Assembly (NCBI RefSeq): GCF_900177415.1
Contig: NZ_FXAF01000002.1
Location: 868,001 to 932,000, forward strand
Source: Xaviernesmea oryzae
GTDB lineage: Bacteria > Pseudomonadota > Alphaproteobacteria > Rhizobiales > Rhizobiaceae
Length of the DNA: 64,000 nt
Reading direction: 5' to 3'
Below the pieces are notes generated by a model. It was not told the origin of the DNA, searched no databases, and was given only the letters and a program-made list of their open reading frames with translations. Made by a program: the position numbers and the translations under genes. Every line of letters starts with the position of its first letter. Within the stretch, counting starts at the first letter, position 1. Of the stretch, positions 26,891 through 35,958 are shown in pieces.

Positions 26891-27262
26891 GATGTCATCT
26901 CTCAATAGGAACAGATGGCGGTCGTTCGTCGGAACGAGGCAGCTTTCTAAGCCGGATGAATTGAAGCATCGGGCGTGAGAGCCGGCTAATAGCTGATCGT
27001 AACGCCGATGATAAAAAATCGCGGATTCCCGGTGGTTTTCAGGGGCCCGATGCCGGTTGCGTACGACCTTGAGGCAAATGCCTGATTGCTGCGCGCGGCC
27101 GATATGCAATTGGGTATCGAATAGGCATTTTCGCGCTTGCAACAGAAGGATCGGCCTTGGGATCATCGAAAGCGGCGATCAAAAAAATCGGCGGGCGGAT
27201 GCCTTCCGGCATCCACCCGTTCAGGACTGCGGCATGGATCGCCCTCCGGTCGGAAGGCGCGA
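26891..27262 (-). other. Intergenic region upstream of the binding-protein gene
   Basis: These 372 bp hold no gene that I can support. They contain a GATAAAAAATCGCG element at 27010-27023, also seen upstream of the monooxygenase and regulator genes, and a small perfect palindrome AGGCAAATGCCT (27072-27083). A promoter for the transporter genes probably lies here. Confidence 0.5.
27006..27024 (-). promoter_or_regulatory. Shared GATAAAAA/CGCG element upstream of the transporter genes
   Basis: The stretch contains CGAT-(8 bases)-ATCG with a GATAAAAA core and a flanking CGCGG. Similar elements occur at 29731-29751 and 31771-31790, each upstream of another transcription unit of this cluster. It is a candidate site for the tandem LysR protein. 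Confidence 0.4.
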
Positions 27263-27814
27263 TCAGGCGAGGTTGCGATAGCGCCCGTCGAGATAGACCA
27301 GCGGTTCGATCCGCCTTTCCGGCAGGCTGATGGTCCTGATCTCGCCGATGAAGATCGTGTGCGACTGGTAGGAGATCGCATGGGCGGTCACGCAGTCGAA
27401 GGCGGCCAGGGCAGCCTCGAAGACCGGCGCGCCGGTGACCAGCGAAATCCAGCCGCCTTCGGTAAACCGCCCTTCCCTGTTTCCGGAACTCGCGAAGCGC
27501 GATGCCACCGCCTCGTCCTCCTGGGCAAGCACGTTGACGCAGAACACCCCTGCCCTGAGCAGCGGATCGTGGCTCGACGCCGATTTGTTGACGCAGACGA
27601 GCAGCGTCGGAGGATCGGCGGAAAGCGCGCTCGCCGAAGTGGCGACGAGCCCGTGAAGCGCCTCGCCGTCGCGGGTGGTGATCAGCGAAACGCCGGCGGG
27701 GAGCCTCCGCATGCCCTGCTTGAAGTTGACGGCGTCGGCAGCAACCGGCTCCGGCGGCCGAAGGCCGATCTTGATGTGCCGCGTATTCCATTCGACGTCC
27801 ATCATGTCCACCAT
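27263..27814 (-). CDS. Flavin reductase-like FMN-binding protein (first of a pair)
   Basis: The 183-residue protein has the split-barrel flavin reductase pattern: FKQGMRRLPAGVSLITTRDGEALHGLVATSASALSADPPTLLVCVNKSASSHDPLLRAGVFCVNVLA (about residues 31-97), with the C-terminal HTIFIGEIRTISLPERRIEPLVYLDGRYRNL. It should reduce FMN for the monooxygenase at 28367. In-frame ATGs at 27805 and 27802 are alternative starts. It follows the second reductase gene by 5 bp. Confidence 0.9.
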   Translation of the reverse strand: MVDMMDVEWNTRHIKIGLRPPEPVAADAVNFKQGMRRLPAGVSLITTRDGEALHGLVATSASALSADPPTLLVCVNKSASSHDPLLRAGVFCVNVLAQEDEAVASRFASSGNREGRFTEGGWISLVTGAPVFEAALAAFDCVTAHAISYQSHTIFIGEIRTISLPERRIEPLVYLDGRYRNLA

Positions 27815-27819
27815 CCCTG

Positions 27820-28338
27820 CTAACCTGCGCTATCCGGTGCCAGAGGAGCGAGGCGATAGTAACCTCCCCGGAATGTCACGAGCGGTTCCGCGGACGGATC
27901 GGCCACGACCCCGCTCAGCGTGCCGACCGCGATAACCGTGCCGTCGCGCTCGATAATCTCGTCGAGCCGGCAGTCGAAGGCGCCGACCGCCCCTTCGAGG
28001 ACCGGGGCTCCGGTCGCCAGCGGCTTCCAGACGGCGGTCGTGAACCGTTCGGCGCCCTTCAGGCCCGCCTTGCCGGAAAACACCGCGACAAGATCCTGAC
28101 GATTGGCCGGAAGATAACTGACGGAAAAACAGCGCCCTTCGCGCAGCGCCGAAAGCGCCGAGGTCCCGGCATCGATCGAGACCATGATCCTCGGCGGCCT
28201 GGCGCTGAGATGCGTCGCGGACAGGGCGAGGAAACCCGCCCAGCCCTGCTCTCCGGCAGCGGCGACGACCGCCGCTCCCACTGCCCGGTTGCCGATGGCT
28301 TTCCAGAAGCCCGGCACGTCGATGTCTGTGCCCGTCAT
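27820..28338 (-). CDS. Flavin reductase-like FMN-binding protein (second of a pair)
   Basis: This 172-residue protein has the same fold as its neighbour but is clearly divergent: FWKAIGNRAVGAAVVAAAGEQGWAGFLALSATHLSARPPRIMVSIDAGTSALSALREGRCFSVSYLPANRQDLVAVFSG, ending PLVTFRGGYYRL. The usual G-V-x-V/L-T/V-T segment is altered to GAAVVAA, so it may have another cofactor use or partner. Two adjacent reductases for one monooxygenase is unusual. It lies 28 bp after the monooxygenase gene. Confidence 0.85.
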   Translation of the reverse strand: MTGTDIDVPGFWKAIGNRAVGAAVVAAAGEQGWAGFLALSATHLSARPPRIMVSIDAGTSALSALREGRCFSVSYLPANRQDLVAVFSGKAGLKGAERFTTAVWKPLATGAPVLEGAVGAFDCRLDEIIERDGTVIAVGTLSGVVADPSAEPLVTFRGGYYRLAPLAPDSAG

Positions 28339-28366: not shown

Positions 28367-29647
28367 TCAGAAGGCCATCACATTGTCGCGCAGCATGTCG
28401 TGGCTGTATTCGGTGCGGGTGGCGCCGCGCTTCTGCAGCGCCGGCACCAGCTCGTCGACGATCTGGCTGAGATAGCTGGGCTTCAGGTGACCGGTGATGA
28501 GGTAACCGTCGCCGCCGACTTCGGCCATCGCCTCGATAAGCTCGGCCGCGACGTCTTCCGGCGTGCCGACGATCGGCCAGCGCGGCGGCGACGTCACGAT
28601 CTGCCGCAGGGTCACGGCCGGATCCTTGAACTTCCCGAGGATGGTCTGCATGCCGTTGGTCTTGATTTCGCCGACCGGCGCATCGAGGTCGAACTTCGAG
28701 AAATCGATACCGGAAAGGAACGACATGGAGGCGAGCGCGTGCTGCATGCGCTTTTCGAGCATCTTCGGATAGTTCTGCTTGTATTCGTCCGCTTCCTGCC
28801 GGCTTTTGGTGATGACCGGGGCGACGGCGAACATCAGCTTGACCTTGGTCGGATCGCGGCCGAAGCTCACGGCATAGGACCGTACGTCGATGCAATACTG
28901 CTTCATCTCTTCGATATTCTCGGCGCTGCCCAGCACGACCTCGGCATTGCGGCCGGAGAATTTGCGGCCGCGCGGCGAGCCGCCGGGGGCGATCAGCAGT
29001 GGGCAGCCCTGCGGACTGCGCGGCACGTTCAGCGGCCCGCGGGACTTGTAATATTCCCCTTCGAAATTGACGGTCCTGACCTTCGATGGGTCGATGAACG
29101 TCTCGTCGTTGTTGACGACGGCGTCGGGCTCCCAGGCCCCCCACAGCTGCTTGACGAGATCGACGAACTCGTCGGCCATGTCGTAACGCTTGTCATGCTC
29201 GAACTGCTTGTCGTAGCCGAAGTTCTGGGCGGCCGCGTCACTGGTCGCCGTGACGATGTTCCAGGCCATGCGGCCGTTCGAATAGTGGTCGAGGGTCGCC
29301 ATGGAGCGGGCCAGGATCCAGGGCGGATAGAAGGTCGAGGTCATCGTGGTGGCGACGCCGAGCTTTTTCGTCGCTTCGAGGATATAGGGCGTGACGATGA
29401 CGGGATCGAATTTCGGCGTCATGGCCGCATGGCGCAGATAGAAGTCCATGTTGCCGCCGTAGGTATAGGGTATGGCGGACGTGTCTTCGAGAATCAGGAA
29501 GTCGAAGAAGGCCTGTTCGAGGCGCCGCGCCCCATCGCGAAAAATATCCGGCTTGGTCCAGTCGTAGCTCTTGGCGAAATTGGGCGTGTTCCAGCCCTGC
29601 ACGGTGATGCCCGGACCAAGGAACCATCCCAGATGGAAGGCGCACAT
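28367..29647 (-). CDS. NtaA/SnaA/DszA-family FMNH2-dependent monooxygenase
   Basis: The 426-residue protein has the hallmarks of this group: HLGWFLGPGITVQGWN at the N-terminus, LEDTSAIPYTYGGNMDFYLRHAAMTPKFDPVIVTPYI, ATLDHYSNGRMAWNIVTATSDAAAQNFG, and QGCPLLIAPGGSPRGRKFSGRNAEVVL. Relatives oxidise nitrilotriacetate, EDTA, dibenzothiophene sulfone and pristinamycin. The ATG at 29647 has AAGAGGGG eight bases ahead; the frame stays open to 29764 but without similarity. With a reductase pair downstream and hydrolytic genes upstream, it probably opens or dealkylates the imported substrate. It resembles the truncated protein at 1-431. Confidence 0.92.
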   Translation of the reverse strand: MCAFHLGWFLGPGITVQGWNTPNFAKSYDWTKPDIFRDGARRLEQAFFDFLILEDTSAIPYTYGGNMDFYLRHAAMTPKFDPVIVTPYILEATKKLGVATTMTSTFYPPWILARSMATLDHYSNGRMAWNIVTATSDAAAQNFGYDKQFEHDKRYDMADEFVDLVKQLWGAWEPDAVVNNDETFIDPSKVRTVNFEGEYYKSRGPLNVPRSPQGCPLLIAPGGSPRGRKFSGRNAEVVLGSAENIEEMKQYCIDVRSYAVSFGRDPTKVKLMFAVAPVITKSRQEADEYKQNYPKMLEKRMQHALASMSFLSGIDFSKFDLDAPVGEIKTNGMQTILGKFKDPAVTLRQIVTSPPRWPIVGTPEDVAAELIEAMAEVGGDGYLITGHLKPSYLSQIVDELVPALQKRGATRTEYSHDMLRDNVMAF

Positions 29648-29730: not shown

Positions 29731-29751
29731 GTGTGATAAAAATCCGCGATG
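29731..29751 (-). promoter_or_regulatory. Shared GATAAAAA/CGCG element upstream of the monooxygenase gene
   Basis: ATCGTG-(11 bases)-CGCGAT forms an imperfect inverted repeat around a GATAAAAAT core, about 85-105 bp upstream of the monooxygenase start. The form fits the T-N11-A type of LysR operator. Compare 27006-27024 and 31771-31790. Confidence 0.42.
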
Positions 29752-29768: not shown

Positions 29769-31679
29769 TCAGACGGTCACCAGATCTGCTGCCGCGGTTC
29801 CCGGCGCGCGCTCCCGGGGCGCGAACGACTTGCGCAGGTTGTCGACGAAGCTGCGGGCCGCATCGCTGAACGGCCCGTCGCGCCGGTGGGCGAGGCAGAT
29901 GGCGCGGACGATCTGCGGATCGCGGATTTCGTGCACCGACAGGTGCCGGCGGTCCTTGCTGGCCTTGAGCGCATTGGTCGGCAGGATGGTCGCATAACCG
30001 CCGATCTTCACGAGGCTGAGGGCCGCGGCCATGGAATCCACCTCCATACGCGGCTTGAGCGTGAGGTTGCGGCCCTGCAGGTGCTCCAGCAGAAGCGCGC
30101 GCAAGCCGTGCCGGCTCGATGGCAGGACGAGCGGCAGGTGGACGATGTCCGCCAGCGCGATCGGTCCCTCCGGCAGGAGGCCGGTATCGCTGTTGGTCAC
30201 CACCGCCATGCTGTCTTCCGCAAGGCAATGGAAGGCGATCTGGTCGTCGTTGACGTACCGGTCCACCAGGGCGAAATCGATCTTGCGGGTCCGCAGCCAT
30301 TGCAGCAGCGTCGGTGAATAGCCCTCGGCCACCTGCACCTCGCTTTCATTATGCAATCCGAGCCAGGCCTGCAGACCGTCGGCAAAACAGACGGCGGTGG
30401 AGCTCTCGTCGTCGAGCGCCGGTATCAGGCCGACCTTCAGTCGGCGCACCTGCCTGGAAACCGGCGCGCGCAACTGCTGGATCGCGAGGTTGAGGTCGTT
30501 CAGGAGCGGGCGCAGCAGGCCATAGAGGACATCCGCCCTCGGATTGGCTTCAAGCCCGTGGCGTACGCGCTCGAACAGCGGCCCACCGAGCTGGTCCTCG
30601 ATATTCTGCAGCCGGACCGTCATCGCCGGCTGGACGATGCACATGCGGTCGGCCGCCTTGTGGACATTGCCCTCTTCATAAAGGGCGACGAAGGAGCGGC
30701 AGTGCTTCAGCGACAACCGTTCATTGGGGATTTCGCCGGGGAATGCAGCGCTCAGGGAAGCCGAAACGGCAGGCTCGGAAAGCTGCTCGCGCAGCACGCT
30801 GGCGAGTTCCTGGGCTTCATGCGCGTGGCCGCGCGCCGACCAGATGGACAGGACGGGATCGAAGGCCGTTTCCGCGAGCCAGCCGCAGCTGAAATGCTGC
30901 GCGAGGGCGGGGTTGAGCAGGCTTGTGGGGATCAGGATGGCGAAATTGCGTTCCTGGCCTAAACCCGCGAGCAGCTCGTGCAGCGGCTCGCCTGACCATT
31001 CGAGATTGATGCGCGCCCGTTCGGCCAATGAGTTGAGCGGGCCGTGAAGGGCTTCGGGCAGCGCCGGCACTATGATGTCCCTACCGGCGAGACTTCCCGG
31101 ATTGACGGGCTGGGACACCCATCCCTGTTGCTGCGGGACACCCTGCACCAGCACCCATCGATCGCGGACCTGAATGAGGTCGCCGTCATCGGGAATGCTG
31201 AAGAAACCGGCCCTCAGGGCGGCAGAGGCATCCTTCGGATCATAGGTCGGAAAGAGCTGAAAATCCGTGCTGCCGTGCCAGCCCGCCAGCGATGGCGCGA
31301 GATCGAGCGGCGCGCCGGGAAAGCCGGCATGCAGGAGGACGGTCGGCGGCTTCCTGTTCGAGCCTGGCGGGAAGGCGCCCGCAACGATGTCCAGCGAGCG
31401 GTCCAGCCGTTCGATGAGCGGCCGCAGTATCTGGTAGACGTTAAGCCCCTCCGGCGTCACCACGATACCGGCACGGACCCGCCGGAAAAGCGGGACGCTG
31501 AATTCCTCGCCCATCGCCTTGGCATGGGCGCTGACGGTGGAATGGCTGAGGCCGAAGCGCTGGGCGATGCGCGTCACGCTCCCCTCCTGGACCAAGGCGA
31601 GGAAGGTGCGGATCTGGATGGAATTCACAACCAGGCGGCTTGACGGATCCAGATCGGAGGTCTCGAGCTGCAGGGGCAT
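29769..31679 (-). CDS. Tandem LysR-LysR fusion transcriptional regulator
   Basis: One uninterrupted frame encodes two complete LysR units (636 residues from the ATG at 31679). Unit 1: helix-turn-helix at about residues 19-80 (IQIRTFLALVQEGSVTRIAQRFGLSHSTVSAHAKAMGEEF), effector-like domain to about 310. Unit 2: helix-turn-helix at about 322-385 (LKHCRSFVALYEEGNVHKAADRMCIVQPAMTVRLQNIEDQLGGPLFERV), effector domain about 412-620 (VGLIPALDDES, FALVDRY, PLVLPSSRHGLRALL). Ordinary LysR proteins are about 300 residues. GAGGAG lies ten bases ahead of the ATG; a TTG at 31715 is a weaker start. It sits upstream of the monooxygenase on the same strand and probably controls the cluster. Confidence 0.9.
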   Translation of the reverse strand: MPLQLETSDLDPSSRLVVNSIQIRTFLALVQEGSVTRIAQRFGLSHSTVSAHAKAMGEEFSVPLFRRVRAGIVVTPEGLNVYQILRPLIERLDRSLDIVAGAFPPGSNRKPPTVLLHAGFPGAPLDLAPSLAGWHGSTDFQLFPTYDPKDASAALRAGFFSIPDDGDLIQVRDRWVLVQGVPQQQGWVSQPVNPGSLAGRDIIVPALPEALHGPLNSLAERARINLEWSGEPLHELLAGLGQERNFAILIPTSLLNPALAQHFSCGWLAETAFDPVLSIWSARGHAHEAQELASVLREQLSEPAVSASLSAAFPGEIPNERLSLKHCRSFVALYEEGNVHKAADRMCIVQPAMTVRLQNIEDQLGGPLFERVRHGLEANPRADVLYGLLRPLLNDLNLAIQQLRAPVSRQVRRLKVGLIPALDDESSTAVCFADGLQAWLGLHNESEVQVAEGYSPTLLQWLRTRKIDFALVDRYVNDDQIAFHCLAEDSMAVVTNSDTGLLPEGPIALADIVHLPLVLPSSRHGLRALLLEHLQGRNLTLKPRMEVDSMAAALSLVKIGGYATILPTNALKASKDRRHLSVHEIRDPQIVRAICLAHRRDGPFSDAARSFVDNLRKSFAPRERAPGTAAADLVTV

Positions 31680-31770: not shown

Positions 31771-31790
31771 ATCCTATTTTTATCGTGACA
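31771..31790 (+). promoter_or_regulatory. Shared ATTTTTATC element upstream of the tandem LysR gene
   Basis: CGAT-(9 bases)-ATCG encloses CCTATTTTT about 95 bp upstream of the regulator start, in an AT-rich stretch of the 237-bp gap 31680-31916. The reverse strand reads CGATAAAAATAG, like the elements at 27006 and 29731. It may serve autoregulation. Confidence 0.38.
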
Positions 31791-31916: not shown

Positions 31917-33278
31917 TCAATAGGCGTCGAGCTCGCGCTTTACGCGCTCGAGCACGTCCAGCCGGGGGCGGACGAATTCCGAACGCGTGCCTGAATTTCC
32001 GTCACCGGGCCTCGTCGTCGCAACCATGCCGATCTTGGTCACCGTGAGGTCTTCATGGACGGGATCGCACCGGTCGGCCTTCATGCCCGGAAGGACGATC
32101 ATGTCTTCATGGCCGCGGAAACGTGCTGCGAGAGACCATTCGACCTGGGTCCAGTCCTCCGGGTCGATGTCGTCCTCGATGGCGATCACCAGCTTGAACA
32201 GATTGACCTGGCCCATGGCCGCGATGATCGCGCGCTTGGCCTCGCCGAGCGCGGGCCGGTGCATGCTGATGACGGCATGCAGCCGCCCCATCCCGCCCTC
32301 CGTCACGAAGACGCGGCGAACCGAGGGAATGATCTTCTGAAGCGCGTGGCAAACCGTCACGCCGATCGCGACGCCGCCGAGAAGGCAGTGTTCGGGCGCA
32401 AAACCCGGCAGGATCGCCTGGTATATGGCGTCACGGCGATGGGTGATGCATTTCGCTTCGACGGCGATGCCAGGCCCGTAACGGACGTAGAAGCCGGGAA
32501 ATTCGGAAACCGCACCCTCGTCGATGAGTTCGCCCGGCTTCAGGACCGCCTCGATCACGATCTCTGCCTCGGCCGGCACTTCAAGGTCGACGGTCTTGCA
32601 TTTGACCAGGCGCAACGGTTCGCCGAGAATCGCCCCGACCGTATCGAATTCGTCGTCGCCGAGGCCGAGATAGAGCTGCGACCCGAGCATCATGGCGGGG
32701 TGGTTGCCGAGCACGACGGCGATTTCGAGATCCTGTTCGAGCTGCCGCGCGCGTTCCGCCATGATGGCCAGATGGTGGTTCTTGGCGATACCGGCCATCA
32801 TCCGGCTGCCGCCTTCCAACCGGAGGCGGGCGATGGAGACATTCCTTTTGCCGGTATCGGGATGTTTCGCGATGATGACCCCCGCCGTGATATACGGACC
32901 CGCCTCGTGCTCGAACCAGTAGGGAACCGGCAGCACCTTGCCGATGTCGAAAGGCAGGTTCACGGTCTCTTCCTGCACCGGCGCGTCCGACACAATGACC
33001 GGCGGCACCGGCGATTTCAGCGCGGCGATGCAATGCGCATCGAGCTCGCCGGCCGCGATGTCCAGCGCCTCCTCGAACCTCGCCCGGGAATTCAGCAGGT
33101 TGCCGACCACCGGCATGCCATGACCGCGCACGTTCTGGAAAAGCTGGGCCGGACCTTTGCCGCGCAGGCCGAGAACGGCGCTGATCTCGTATTCGAGATC
33201 CACCTTGCGATCGACCCTGTGCAGCGATCCGCTCGCCTCCAGCTTTTCGAGAAACGGCCTGAGTCCCTGATCCGTCAT
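31917..33278 (-). CDS. UbiD-family (prenylated-FMN) decarboxylase
   Basis: The 453-residue protein has UbiD features: GLRPFLEKLEASGSLHRVDRKVDLEYEISAVLG, NVSIARLRLEGGSRMMAG with the prFMN-site arginine, LGNHPAMMLGSQLYLGLGDDEF, GAVSEFPGFYVRYG with the catalytic-region Glu, and RVFVTEGGMGRLHAVISM. UbiD enzymes reversibly decarboxylate aromatic, heteroaromatic or acrylic acids and need prenylated FMN made by UbiX; no ubiX lies in this window. The start overlaps the stop of the carbamoylase gene by one base (TAATG), so the two hydrolases and this decarboxylase form one operon. A linked heterocyclic acid substrate is inferred. Confidence 0.9.
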   Translation of the reverse strand: MTDQGLRPFLEKLEASGSLHRVDRKVDLEYEISAVLGLRGKGPAQLFQNVRGHGMPVVGNLLNSRARFEEALDIAAGELDAHCIAALKSPVPPVIVSDAPVQEETVNLPFDIGKVLPVPYWFEHEAGPYITAGVIIAKHPDTGKRNVSIARLRLEGGSRMMAGIAKNHHLAIMAERARQLEQDLEIAVVLGNHPAMMLGSQLYLGLGDDEFDTVGAILGEPLRLVKCKTVDLEVPAEAEIVIEAVLKPGELIDEGAVSEFPGFYVRYGPGIAVEAKCITHRRDAIYQAILPGFAPEHCLLGGVAIGVTVCHALQKIIPSVRRVFVTEGGMGRLHAVISMHRPALGEAKRAIIAAMGQVNLFKLVIAIEDDIDPEDWTQVEWSLAARFRGHEDMIVLPGMKADRCDPVHEDLTVTKIGMVATTRPGDGNSGTRSEFVRPRLDVLERVKRELDAY

Positions 33279-34606
33279 TACTGTTCCACCGGCTTTGCGA
33301 GGGTAGGCAAGACGGAATGTCTCGCGGCATCCGGCCCGTCGCAAAGAAGAATTGCTTCGAAAAGGGTCGCCGCACCGGCGGCCAGGGCGGATGGTTCGCT
33401 CCATTCGTCCGGCCGGTGGCTCTTGCCGTCGACCGAGGGAATGAACACCATCGCAGCCGGTGCGATGCTCGCCATGAAGGCCGCGTCATGCCCGGCGCCG
33501 GATGCCATATCCAGCGTGGATAGACCGAGATCCCGGGCGGCGTGGCGCAAGACGGCGCGCAAGCCCGGATCGCAGGCGACGGGATTGCTGTCCGAGAGAA
33601 TATTGCAGCATTCGAGCCTGACCGCGCAGTTCTCGGCGATCACCGCCGCCTCGCGCTTGACCGCGACAATGAAGCGATCCATCGCCGGCCGCTCTTCCGC
33701 CCGTGCGTCGATGATGATGCGCATGGTGCGGGGCACGACGTTGGCCGCGTTCGGCGAAACCTCGACCACGCCGGACGTCGCGACGAAATGGCCGCGCCCC
33801 TGGTTGGCGATACGCTGGGCGAGCGAATTGACGAACACCATCATCTGCGCGCCGGCTATGCTCGCATCCCGCCTCAAATGCATCGGCGTCGTCCCGGCAT
33901 GGTCGGCCGAGCCTTCGAAGACGACTTCCATGCGCGTCACGCCGGCAATGCCGGAGACCACCCCGATATCTATCTCGCTTCGTTCGAGAACGGCGCCCTG
34001 CTCGATATGCAGTTCGAAGAAGGCGACGATGTCCCGCCGCAATATGTCGCCGAGACCTTCCGGCGTGCCGCCCATCCGGGCGATCGCGGCCGCGAGGCGC
34101 TCGCCGCCGGGGCCAGGATAGCCAAGCATCGCAGGCGTCAGCTTGCCCGTCATCGCCCGGCTGCCGACGCAGGACAGCCCGAAATCGCTCGGTTCTTCGG
34201 CGAGGAAATCGATGATCTCGAGATTGTGGCGCAGCCTGATGCCCCGTTCACGCAGCGAATGAACGATTTCAAGCCCGGTCATCACCCCGGCGGTTCCGTC
34301 GAAACGCCCGCCGTTCGGGACGGTATCGGAATGGGAGCCGATCATGATCGTCCCCGACGCCGGATCCATGCCCGAAAGATGCCCGATCATGTTGCCGGCG
34401 GCATCGACGCCGACCGTCAGCCCGGCCTCTTCGAAACAGGCCTTGATCCAGCGCCGGCCCTTCTCGAACATCGGCGTGAAGGACCGGCGGGTATAGGGGC
34501 GCGAGGGCTCGGTGATCTCCGCCAGATCCATCACCTTCTGCCAAAGCCGATCCGCGTCTATCGGCAGGTTGTCGGTGAACGGCGGTGACGGGACGCGCTG
34601 TTCCAT
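33278..34606 (-). CDS. M20-family Zn amidohydrolase (N-carbamoyl-L-amino acid hydrolase/allantoate amidohydrolase type)
   Basis: The 442-residue protein shows the dinuclear metal-site blocks of this family: MIGSHSDTVPNGGRFDGTAGVMTGLEIV (His, Asp), IDFLAEEPSDFGLSCVGSRAMTG (Glu-Glu), FFELHIEQGAVLE (His), and MASGAGHDAAFMAS (His near the C-terminus). Members remove a carbamoyl or ureido group from N-carbamoyl amino acids, beta-ureidopropionate or allantoate. It lies directly behind the cyclic amidohydrolase (one-base TGATG overlap), the standard order for stepwise opening of a hydantoin, dihydropyrimidine or allantoin ring. Confidence 0.92.
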   Translation of the reverse strand: MEQRVPSPPFTDNLPIDADRLWQKVMDLAEITEPSRPYTRRSFTPMFEKGRRWIKACFEEAGLTVGVDAAGNMIGHLSGMDPASGTIMIGSHSDTVPNGGRFDGTAGVMTGLEIVHSLRERGIRLRHNLEIIDFLAEEPSDFGLSCVGSRAMTGKLTPAMLGYPGPGGERLAAAIARMGGTPEGLGDILRRDIVAFFELHIEQGAVLERSEIDIGVVSGIAGVTRMEVVFEGSADHAGTTPMHLRRDASIAGAQMMVFVNSLAQRIANQGRGHFVATSGVVEVSPNAANVVPRTMRIIIDARAEERPAMDRFIVAVKREAAVIAENCAVRLECCNILSDSNPVACDPGLRAVLRHAARDLGLSTLDMASGAGHDAAFMASIAPAAMVFIPSVDGKSHRPDEWSEPSALAAGAATLFEAILLCDGPDAARHSVLPTLAKPVEQ

Positions 34607-35958
34607 CAGAGCGGCCTGACCATGTTTCCAGTGCCGGGTTCCGAGACAACATTGCGCCCGTCGAAGGCGAGCCTGCCGCGCAGGAAGGTCGCCTCCGCGC
34701 GATACGGCATCCTGATGCCGTCATAGGGGCTCCAGTCGACGACATTGTTGCCGCTTTCCGCGGCGCTGTAGATATAGGCGGAGGGTTTGAACACAGCGAT
34801 ATCCGCATCGCGGCCGATCTCCAGCGCACCCTTGCGGTGGCCGATGCGGAACAGCCGCGCCGGGTTTGCGGCCAGCAGCCGCGCCGCATGCGAAAACGAC
34901 AGCCCCCGCTCGGAGAGCCCCTTGAGGAGAAGCGGATACATGGTTTCGAGGCCGGGCACGCCGGACGCGTTGGACAGCATGTCCGGACTGGATTTCAGCG
35001 ACCGCGACCAGCTGACATGGTCTGTCGAGACCACGGTGATCCGACCGGCGGCGAGATGGCGCCAGAGCGCTTCCACCTGATCGCGCGAACGGATCGGCGG
35101 GTTGACCTTGGCGAAGCCGCCGAGCCGCGCGACGTCGTTTTCCTCGTCGAGCGTCAGGTAGTGGATGCAGGCTTCGACCGTCGTATCAAAACCCTGACGG
35201 CGATAGCTGTCGCAAAGGTCGTAGCCGCGCGATATCGAGCAGTGCACGACATGCGTCGAACAACCCGTCGCCGCGCCGATCTCGTAGACCTCGGCCATGG
35301 CGAGCGCCTCGGCGATGGCGGGGCGGGAAAGCGCATGGGCCCGGTAGTCCCGGATGCCGGTCTCTTCGACCTTGGCGATCGCGGTCCGTACGAATTCATC
35401 GTTCTCGTTGTGGATGCCCGCGATCAGGCCGTGTTTGGCGATCTCGGCGAAACATTCGTTGAGGATATAGGGCGTGATGCGCGGAAATCTCTCCGGATGG
35501 GTGCCGAAGGTCGAAAACTTGAATCCGACCGCGCCGGCCTTGATCATGCCGGGGATCTCGGCAGCACCGGCCCTCGGATGGACCGTTCCGTAGAGACCGA
35601 AATCCACCCGCGCCTGCTCGCCCGCCTCCGTCGCCTTGCGGGTCAGCTTCTCGCCGTCGCAGATCAGATTGCCGTCGTCATAGGGCATGTCGACGATCGT
35701 GGTGACACCGCCGGCCGCGGCCGAGCGCGTCGACCAGATGAAGCCCTCCTGATCCTTCTGGGAGAGGGAATGAACCTGGCTATCGATCGCGCCGGGCAGG
35801 ATCAGGGCCTCGCCGAAATCATGCCGTTCGCGGGCGGCGGGCGGTTCGCCCTCGCCGACGAACTCGATCGTTTCACCGCGGATCGCGACGAAACCCTTTT
35901 CGATCACATCGGCCGCCCGAACAACGCGGCCTGTCAGAACCAAATCAAAATCAACCAT
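34606..35958 (-). CDS. Cyclic amidohydrolase (dihydropyrimidinase/hydantoinase/allantoinase-like)
   Basis: The 450-residue protein is an amidohydrolase-superfamily member: MVDFDLVLTGRVV at the N-terminus, GFKFSTFG with the lysine that is normally carboxylated (K147), IHNENDEF (H183), GCSTHVVHCS (H236/H239) and VVSTDHVSW (D313). The first metal site is unusual: the expected H-x-H reads SQVHS, so Gln61 replaces the first His and only His63 remains. Ring opening of a cyclic amide or imide is the likely reaction, with the product passed to the carbamoylase. The ATG at 35958 fits the family N-terminus. Confidence 0.9.
   Translation of the reverse strand: MVDFDLVLTGRVVRAADVIEKGFVAIRGETIEFVGEGEPPAARERHDFGEALILPGAIDSQVHSLSQKDQEGFIWSTRSAAAGGVTTIVDMPYDDGNLICDGEKLTRKATEAGEQARVDFGLYGTVHPRAGAAEIPGMIKAGAVGFKFSTFGTHPERFPRITPYILNECFAEIAKHGLIAGIHNENDEFVRTAIAKVEETGIRDYRAHALSRPAIAEALAMAEVYEIGAATGCSTHVVHCSISRGYDLCDSYRRQGFDTTVEACIHYLTLDEENDVARLGGFAKVNPPIRSRDQVEALWRHLAAGRITVVSTDHVSWSRSLKSSPDMLSNASGVPGLETMYPLLLKGLSERGLSFSHAARLLAANPARLFRIGHRKGALEIGRDADIAVFKPSAYIYSAAESGNNVVDWSPYDGIRMPYRAEATFLRGRLAFDGRNVVSEPGTGNMVRPL

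What the first reader, a model, noticed from the sequence alone, without database searches (positions are those of the whole stretch)
29769..31679. Regulator with two complete LysR units in one polypeptide
A single frame codes for helix-turn-helix, effector domain, second helix-turn-helix and second effector domain. The two halves are divergent, so this is not a recent duplication or an assembly repeat. LysR proteins normally are about 300 residues and act as tetramers of identical chains; a covalent dimer with two different DNA-reading heads and two ligand pockets could integrate two signals or bind asymmetric operators.
Basis: partly seen in the sequence, partly recalled or inferred. Interest (0 to 1): 0.75.

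Follow-up and report, generated by a model that had tools for sequence, protein, structure and literature searches.

The report
Two-headed LysR regulator, one sensor
One bacterial gene encodes a predicted gene regulator that carries two different LysR-type DNA-reading heads on a single chain and belongs to a conserved family often found beside genes predicted to break down hydantoin-5-propionate; likely only one of its two sensor domains still senses.

Summary
One intact frame (636 aa from ATG 31679) carries HTH1-ED1-HTH2-ED2. It is not an assembly fusion: of 41 database hits (the window's own protein included) 36 show all four domains in order. ED1 is invisible to Pfam, but its AlphaFold model matches LysR effector domains. 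The family's widest partner is not NtaA (5 of 5 loci of the window's clade, 0 of 15 others) but hydantoin-5-propionate hydrolase ErtD: all 5 tandem-bearing genomes of a 397-genome order sample are among its 36 ErtD carriers (chance 4.7e-6; 5.2e-5 without the window's genome). N and C halves form separate clades with the same main groups, so the architecture is old. Both heads and ED2 are conserved (64-77% identity), ED1 is relaxed (36-39%), and 17 of 40 hits of a second search are HTH-HTH-ED, without ED1. Of 18 further ErtD regions read, 9 have another two-headed LysR. I read it as two heads with one working sensor, not a two-signal integrator. GATAAAAA, three copies in 64 kb, all upstream of cluster genes, is a weakly supported candidate operator.

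The parts
29772..31679 (-). Coding sequence of the 636-aa tandem LysR regulator (stop 29769-29771)
31440..31622 (-). HTH1, residues 20-80, first DNA-reading head
   Evidence: one of the two HTH_1 stretches; placed; 64% mean identity in clade A
30780..31361 (-). ED1, residues about 107-300, diverged LysR effector domain, relaxed
30534..30716 (-). HTH2, residues 322-382, second DNA-reading head
   Evidence: PF00126 best stretch 324-381; 77% mean identity
29814..30446 (-). ED2, residues 412-622, conserved LysR effector domain with the G-x2-P-x4-E-S, LPSxRHGLR and EVDS motifs
31777..31784 (-). GATAAAAA, candidate operator, 98 bases upstream of the regulator's ATG
   Evidence: one of only 3 copies in the window
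29735..29742 (+). GATAAAAA, candidate operator, 88 bases upstream of NtaA
   Evidence: control
27010..27017 (+). GATAAAAA, candidate operator, 120 bases upstream of the binding-protein gene
   Evidence: control
28370..29647 (-). NtaA/DmoA-family FMN-dependent monooxygenase, likely target
   Evidence: TIGR03860 381.6 bits, cut-off 279.7; start chosen
27823..28338 (-). Flavin reductase 2
   Evidence: PF01613
27266..27814 (-). Flavin reductase 1
   Evidence: PF01613
25271..26890 (-). Family-5 solute-binding protein of an ABC importer
   Evidence: PF00496 2.8e-57; start chosen
31920..33278 (-). UbiD-family decarboxylase
   Evidence: TIGR00148 296 bits, cut-off 245; start chosen
33281..34606 (-). 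ErtE, N-carbamyl-L-glutamate amidohydrolase
   Evidence: NF058540 564 bits, cut-off 520
34609..35958 (-). ErtD, hydantoin-5-propionate amidohydrolase
   Evidence: NF058538 759 bits, cut-off 600; start chosen

Best explanation
The gene encodes one 636-residue chain with two LysR-type DNA-reading heads and a conserved C-terminal effector domain, plus a second effector domain predicted by structure modelling, and it likely switches on the neighbouring genes for breaking down hydantoin-5-propionate-type compounds through two heads and only one working sensor. SHOWN: the four-domain order, its conservation in other genomes and assemblies, separate clades for the two halves, conserved heads and ED2 against a relaxed ED1, relatives without ED1, and linkage to ErtD. 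INFERRED: the two unlike heads pair, within one chain or between two, so that a dimer contains one HTH1 and one HTH2; this heterotypic pair reads an asymmetric operator; a catabolite of the pathway (hydantoin-5-propionate or a urocanate-like precursor) binds ED2 only; ligand binding re-sets the DNA contact as in other LysR proteins; ED1 remains as a spacer or oligomer contact. UNTESTED: ligand, DNA binding, oligomeric state and the sign of regulation.
For: Architecture: 36 of 41 hits (own protein included) and 19 of 40 are HTH-ED-HTH-ED; 17 of 40 are HTH-HTH-ED, 384-407 aa. Both searches scored capped candidate lists. Single origin: on a 90-row quick tree with 31 tandem proteins the N halves are one side of a branch (SH-aLRT 100) and the C halves with 5 of the 17 short forms another (97); the short forms lie inside clade B, and the main groups A, B and C+D recur in both halves. 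Constraint: clade A (18 rows thinned from 36) mean identity HTH1 64, ED1 39, HTH2 77, ED2 64%; clade B (12 of 18 rows) 66, 36, 65, 64%. Linkage: ErtD in 12 of 20 tandem loci within the stretches read (identity 47-69% to the window's where not its own), 13 with the G803 copy about 9 kb away; 17 of 20 carry ErtD, UbiD, thiourocanate hydratase or a histidine-ammonia-lyase-like gene; ErtD at 40% identity or more in 0 of 72 other LysR loci (L009-L080). Genomes: 5 of 5 tandem genomes are among the 36 ErtD-positive of 397 (chance 4.7e-6; 4 of 4 among 35 of 396 without the own genome, 5.2e-5); in the genus 3 of 3 among 18 of 57 (0.028; 0.088 without the own genome), with ErtD about 3 kb away in each. 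Effector loop G-x2-P-x4-[DE]-S in 26 of 33 tandem C halves and 5 of 5 short forms, against 0 of 26 other LysR rows; the ErtD-linked clade-E proteins have the similar G-x3-P-x3-E-S in 10 of 10.
Against: No ligand, DNA-binding or expression data. ED1 keeps 19 of 191 columns at 95% or more in clade A, so it is under some constraint and may have a role. The effector loop is lost in clade C (0 of 2) and L101/L102. In 4 of the 20 tandem loci (L104, L109, L123, L124) ED1 is not detected by my profiles and is inferred from the 300-residue spacing of the heads. The 8-mer is weak: random triplets of window stretches share some 8-mer in 91 of 2000, shuffled gaps in 16 of 2000, and GATAAA-type sites were not found in the stretches read in L001-L004. 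The whole-chain model has pTM 0.63 and I had no coordinates, so head pairing is not shown. The own genome lacks thiourocanate hydratase and thiohydantoin desulfurase over cut-off, so the window's own substrate is unknown. The tree carries long-branch warnings.
Confidence: 0.6

Rival explanations
1. Two-signal integrator: ED1 and ED2 bind different ligands, and the covalent dimer acts only when both are present.
For: Both halves are predicted to fold as LysR units; ED1 retains its own invariant residues in clade A (19 of 191 columns at 95% or more; e.g. PG, DRW, PxLP).
Against: ED1 is the least conserved domain in both clades tested and is missing from 17 of 40 hits of the second search; one such form, L007, sits beside the same ErtD, ErtE and thiourocanate hydratase genes as four-domain forms.
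Confidence: 0.18
2. HTH1 no longer reads DNA: the N half is a dimerisation or inhibitory module and the protein works as an ordinary LysR through its C half.
For: The N half evolves about twice as fast (window to P0004: 1.14 against 0.54 changes per column); in clade E the first head is strongly diverged and was found by profile comparison (hhalign probability 96.9).
Against: HTH1 is as conserved as HTH2 in clade B (66 against 65%) and keeps invariant residues S-T-x-S-A-H-x-K in its third helix in clade A; heads are kept where ED1 is absent.
Confidence: 0.18
3. Assembly or annotation artefact joining two genes.
For: Unusual length for a LysR protein.
Against: The same order in 36 of 41 hits, most of them from other assemblies; each half forms its own clade.
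Confidence: 0.01
4. The protein is a real tandem LysR but regulates genes elsewhere; the ErtD neighbourhood is incidental.
For: In the window the gene points the same way as its neighbours, not divergently as is common for LysR genes (recalled); 7 of 20 tandem loci show no ErtD in the stretch read around them.
Against: Co-occurrence and adjacency with ErtD in clades whose other neighbours differ.
Confidence: 0.07

Closest known systems
LysR-type transcriptional regulators (LTTRs: BenM, CbnR, DntR, OxyR)
   Same: Same two domain folds in both halves
   Different: Two units in one chain; LTTR monomers are about 300 residues and generally form homotetramers (PMC4730206, passages read)
One-unit LysR proteins beside UbiD genes (L009, L010, L020, L031, L057 and others)
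   Same: Nearest one-unit relatives of the C half among the rows used in the trees; UbiD in 64 of 72 loci L009-L080
   Different: One head, one effector domain, without the G-x2-P-x4-[DE]-S loop, no ErtD at 40% identity or more
Short forms of clade B (P0060-P0076) and clade-E regulators of ErtD clusters (9 of the 18 regions L110-L127)
   Same: Two heads on one chain; clade E and the short form L007 lie in ErtD clusters
   Different: No ED1; HTH-HTH-ED of about 380-410 residues. Clade E is not placed inside the tandem clade by the free tree, though a common clade is not rejected (p-AU 0.70)
Two other two-headed LysR frames of the same genome (L105:8784-9992, L130:7640-8944)
   Same: Two HTH_1 heads in one frame
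   Different: 403 and 435 residues, one effector domain by length; the L105 one lacks the G-x2-P-x4-[DE]-S loop; apparently independent cases

Membership tests
LysR-type transcriptional regulator | Winged HTH of the HTH_1 family | tested here: met
LysR-type transcriptional regulator | LysR substrate-binding domain after the head | tested here: met
   PF03466 for ED2; ED1 only by predicted structure
LysR-type transcriptional regulator | One unit of about 300 residues per chain | tested here: not met
   636 residues, two units; therefore filed as a variant, not as a standard member
LysR-type transcriptional regulator | Homotetramer with ligand-dependent DNA contact | not testable with these tools
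   No biochemistry; no coordinates of a complex
Two-headed LysR family described here | Two HTH_1 heads in one chain | tested here: met
Two-headed LysR family described here | Effector loop G-x2-P-x4-[DE]-S | tested here: met
   GLIPALDDES in ED2; present in 26 of 33 tandem C halves, so not universal
Two-headed LysR family described here | ErtD neighbour | tested here: met
   NF058538 759 bits at 34609-35958; in the family 12 of 20 loci
Ergothioneine utilisation cluster | ErtD and ErtE over curated cut-off | tested here: met
Ergothioneine utilisation cluster | Thiourocanate hydratase and thiohydantoin desulfurase in the genome | tested here: not met
   Best 675 of 930 bits and 111 of 440 bits in the own genome; the window's cluster is ErtD-linked but is not filed as an ergothioneine cluster

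The most novel reading that the evidence does not exclude
There is a distinct, old class of LysR regulators built as covalent pairs of unlike DNA-reading heads served by one sensor. It governs the breakdown of ergothioneine and other histidine-derived imidazoles that funnel into hydantoin-5-propionate in alphaproteobacteria. Nature has run the deletion series itself: four domains (HTH-ED-HTH-ED), then the same regulator with the first sensor gone (HTH-HTH-ED), the heads kept throughout. LysR symmetry is thus not essential, and asymmetric operators can be read by a single gene product.
Probability: 0.45. Interest if true: 0.72.

Novelty: new variant of a known kind. Interest (0 to 1): 0.6.

Why it matters
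LysR proteins are among the most abundant bacterial regulators and are usually explained by symmetric homo-oligomers. A natural, conserved chain with two unlike heads, and relatives without one of the two sensors, lets one ask directly which parts of the tetramer are needed for sensing, DNA bending and activation. It also offers a signature by which clusters for ergothioneine-like and other hydantoin-5-propionate-forming substrates can be recognised, and points to UbiD and NtaA enzymes as candidates for unassigned steps in such pathways.

Tried and rejected
Assembly fusion: rejected. 'N half is not LysR': rejected by the model of the N half alone. 'Always beside NtaA': rejected. Ergothioneine as the window's own substrate by the thiourocanate route: not supported. 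Duplication against fusion of two different LysR genes: not decided; on the tree the C half is nearer to UbiD-linked one-unit LysR proteins than to the N half, but branches are long and only the quick method was used. Operator: no GATAAA-type site in the stretches read in L001-L004 (stretches chosen by eye); a 16-base extension with up to 3 mismatches has 42 matches in the own genome against 10 for the reversed control; one-mismatch GATAAAAATC is weak (5 against 1.9 expected, 7 of 100 shuffles as many); random triplets of window stretches share some 8-mer in 91 of 2000 draws. Plasmid records: no match at E 1e-40. Literature: searches (tandem or two-headed LysR; ergothioneine genes); no listed paper was, by title and start of abstract, about such a regulator. 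Lists were cut in 54 (15 of 21), 86 (12 of 14) and 88 (10 of 28). Beyond listings I saw only passages of PMC5882156, PMC4730206 and PMC13405746. The ergothioneine sulfonate pathway paper (Yan et al. 2022) was seen only as a reference in PMC13405746.

Limits of counts: the genome search scored only the top few candidates per genome; at E 1e-70 it missed at least two tandems (L123, L124) that I found by reading ErtD regions, so tandem counts are lower bounds and a tandem in an ErtD-negative genome could also have been missed. The 18 further ErtD regions are from 17 of the 31 over-cut-off genomes without a hit, plus G804 (595 of 600 bits): 9 have a clade-E two-headed LysR (in L110 and L115 the first head was recognised by alignment only), 2 a tandem, 1 (L117) a matching C part whose first head is not in the same frame, 6 none seen. 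Rows dropped before the trees: L011, L066, L074, L079 (one-unit rows, two with odd lengths); L089 from the halves (near-copy of L087); P0080 from the second tree; L105d and L130 were not used as two-headed rows, only the C part of L105d.

Full report

NOT AN ARTEFACT. A search of 5.8 billion proteins (7997 candidates scored) gave 41 hits, one of them the window's own protein. By domain profiles built from their alignment 36 are HTH-ED-HTH-ED, 1 is the same with an overlapping extra head call, 3 are N-terminally short, 1 is HTH-HTH-ED. A second search with a wider alignment (8000 candidates scored) gave 40 hits: 19 HTH-ED-HTH-ED, 17 HTH-HTH-ED of 384-407 residues, and 4 with one unit or only a head detected.

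FAMILY AND HISTORY. I call the window's group clade A; B includes L005, L006, L008 and P0042-P0059; C is L087-L090; D includes L095, L101-L104, L123 and L124. On a 90-row tree (IQ-TREE quick, LG+C20; 31 tandem proteins) the N halves are one side of a branch (SH-aLRT 100), the C halves with 5 short forms are another (97), and the main groups A, B and C+D recur in both; the branching inside C+D differs between the halves, and the program warns of long branches. The two-unit chain is thus older than these clades. The short HTH-HTH-ED forms lie inside clade B, so there the first effector domain was most simply lost while both heads were kept. Among the rows used, the nearest one-unit relatives of the C half are LysR proteins beside UbiD genes (UbiD in 64 of 72 loci L009-L080). 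Whether the N half came from duplication or from another LysR is not decided.

CONSTRAINT. Among 18 clade-A rows (36 thinned at 80% identity) mean pairwise identity is HTH1 64, ED1 39, HTH2 77 and ED2 64%; among 12 of 18 clade-B rows it is 66, 36, 65 and 64%. Columns conserved at 95% or more in clade A: 18 of 61, 19 of 191, 28 of 61 and 75 of 211. Both heads and the second sensor are held; the first sensor much less. Conserved stretches of ED2 include GLIPALDDES, LPSxRHGLR and EVDS. The loop G-x2-P-x4-[DE]-S is in 26 of 33 tandem C halves (A 13 of 14, B 8 of 10, C 0 of 2, D 5 of 7), 5 of 5 short forms and 0 of 26 other LysR rows. That it lines the ligand pocket is inferred from its place in the LysR fold, not tested.

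CONTEXT. The neighbours are ErtD (NF058538, 759 bits, cut-off 600), ErtE (NF058540, 564, cut-off 520), UbiD, an NtaA-type monooxygenase, two flavin reductases and a family-5 binding protein. I compared 20 tandem loci (window, L001-L006, L008, L088-L090, L095, L101-L104, L108, L109, L123, L124; in L104, L109, L123 and L124 ED1 is inferred from head spacing). ErtD lies in the stretch read in 12 (L001's at 47% identity to the window's, the others at 58-69%), and in 13 counting G803, where it is about 9 kb away. L005 pairs the regulator with thiourocanate hydratase (1031 of 930 bits) and thiohydantoin desulfurase (613 of 440); L006 (hydratase 977 of 930), L102 and the short-form locus L007 carry relatives of both at 74-87% identity. 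L088 and L089 have the end of a thiourocanate hydratase, a UbiD 70% identical to the window's, and UbiX within about 9 kb. L095, L104, L108, L109, L123 and L124 have a histidine-ammonia-lyase-like gene (L095's and L104's pass PRK09367 but not the hutH cut-off). L002 and L003 have UbiD but no ErtD in the stretch read. Three loci show none of these: L008 and L090 are contigs of 6.3 and 7.3 kb, and L101 lies at the start of its contig (12 kb read; ErtD in that genome is on another contig). NtaA is next door in 5 of 5 clade-A loci and was not found in the stretches of the other 15. In contrast 0 of 72 other LysR loci (L009-L080; none has a two-unit frame of 450 aa or more) have an ErtD at 40% identity or more; 13 have a 24-26% relative.

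CO-OCCURRENCE. In an order-level sample of 397 genomes 5 have a tandem at E 1e-70 and 36 an ErtD over cut-off; all 5 are among the 36, chance 4.7e-6, or 5.2e-5 (4 of 4 among 35 of 396) without the window's own genome. In the genus 3 of 57 have a tandem and 18 of 57 ErtD; all 3 coincide (0.028; 0.088 without the own genome), and in each ErtD is about 3 kb away. Rarity: 4 of 199 genomes in the family sample at E 1e-60 and 3 of 385 in the class sample at 1e-70, own genome included.

A SECOND TWO-HEADED GROUP. I read 18 further ErtD regions (17 from the 31 over-cut-off genomes without a tandem call, plus G804 just under it). Nine have a LysR protein of 382-406 residues with two heads and one effector domain (L110, L111, L112, L113, L115, L116, L118, L119, L120), two have tandems that the cut-off had missed (L123, L124), one (L117) has a matching C part only in frame, and six have none seen. 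The first head of this group is diverged but matches HTH1 by profile comparison (probability 96.9); in L110 and L115 it was recognised by alignment alone. Its effector loop is G-x3-P-x3-E-S in 10 of 10 rows, close to the G-H-D-S loop of clade D. The free tree puts it apart; holding it together with the tandems is not rejected (p-AU 0.70) and scores slightly higher. So in the regions read, two heads are common among this pathway's LysR proteins, whatever the exact branching.

OPERATOR. GATAAAAA occurs three times in 64 kb on both strands, and all three copies are in the gaps upstream of the regulator (31777), NtaA (29735) and the binding protein (27010), against 0.7 expected anywhere; 2 of 100 shuffles of the window have three or more. 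Shuffles of the three gaps share any 8-mer in 16 of 2000; random triplets of window stretches of the same lengths do in 91 of 2000. The site is not found in the stretches read in L001-L004, so it stays a candidate with modest support.

MECHANISM. The simplest reading of conserved heads, one conserved sensor, and loss of the other sensor without loss of its head is a covalent heterotypic head pair driven by one ligand site. That the heads contact DNA together, and that ED2 binds a pathway intermediate, are inferences. The own genome has no thiourocanate hydratase or thiohydantoin desulfurase over cut-off, so the window's branch would reach hydantoin-5-propionate, or something like it, by another route; NtaA and UbiD are candidates for it.

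KNOWN OR NEW. LTTR monomers are described as about 300 residues, generally forming homotetramers (PMC4730206, passages). Ten literature searches listed no paper that by title and abstract start reports this architecture, in a library that lacks most subscription papers. I file it as a new variant of the LysR kind: the folds are met, the single-unit rule is not.

Noticed in passing
L105:8784-9992 (G000:C10) and L130:7640-8944 (G000:C2): The same genome has two more frames with two HTH_1 heads each and room for one effector domain (403 and 435 residues); the C10 one lies near genes with weak similarity to Liv-type binding proteins. Among 80 HTH_1 matches in the genome, three frames hold two each.
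   Followed up: partly
L088:328-1680, L104:11488-12810, L116, L119, L123, L124, L127; window 31920-33278: UbiD-family genes recur beside ErtD or thiourocanate hydratase, up to 70% identical to the window's UbiD; UbiD may catalyse an unassigned step of histidine-derivative breakdown.
   Followed up: partly
window 20001-42000: The window's cluster has UbiD but no relative of the L006 UbiX at E 1e-15, unlike several relatives where UbiX follows UbiD.
   Followed up: no
window 27266-27814 and 27823-28338: Two different flavin reductases (about 30% identical) stand side by side next to a single NtaA-type monooxygenase.
   Followed up: no
L009-L080: 64 of 72 loci of other LysR relatives have UbiD nearby, and L009 and L058 also UbiX: a LysR-UbiD association in pseudomonads, bradyrhizobia and others.
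   Followed up: partly
L077:7854-9833: Two separate, adjacent LysR frames with a stop between them, near a distant NtaA-like gene (30% identity), in Skermanella: separate genes in tandem, from another LysR branch.
   Followed up: no
L117:1626-2927: A clade-E-like LysR whose first head does not read in the same frame as the rest; broken or mis-assembled. Left as found.
   Followed up: no
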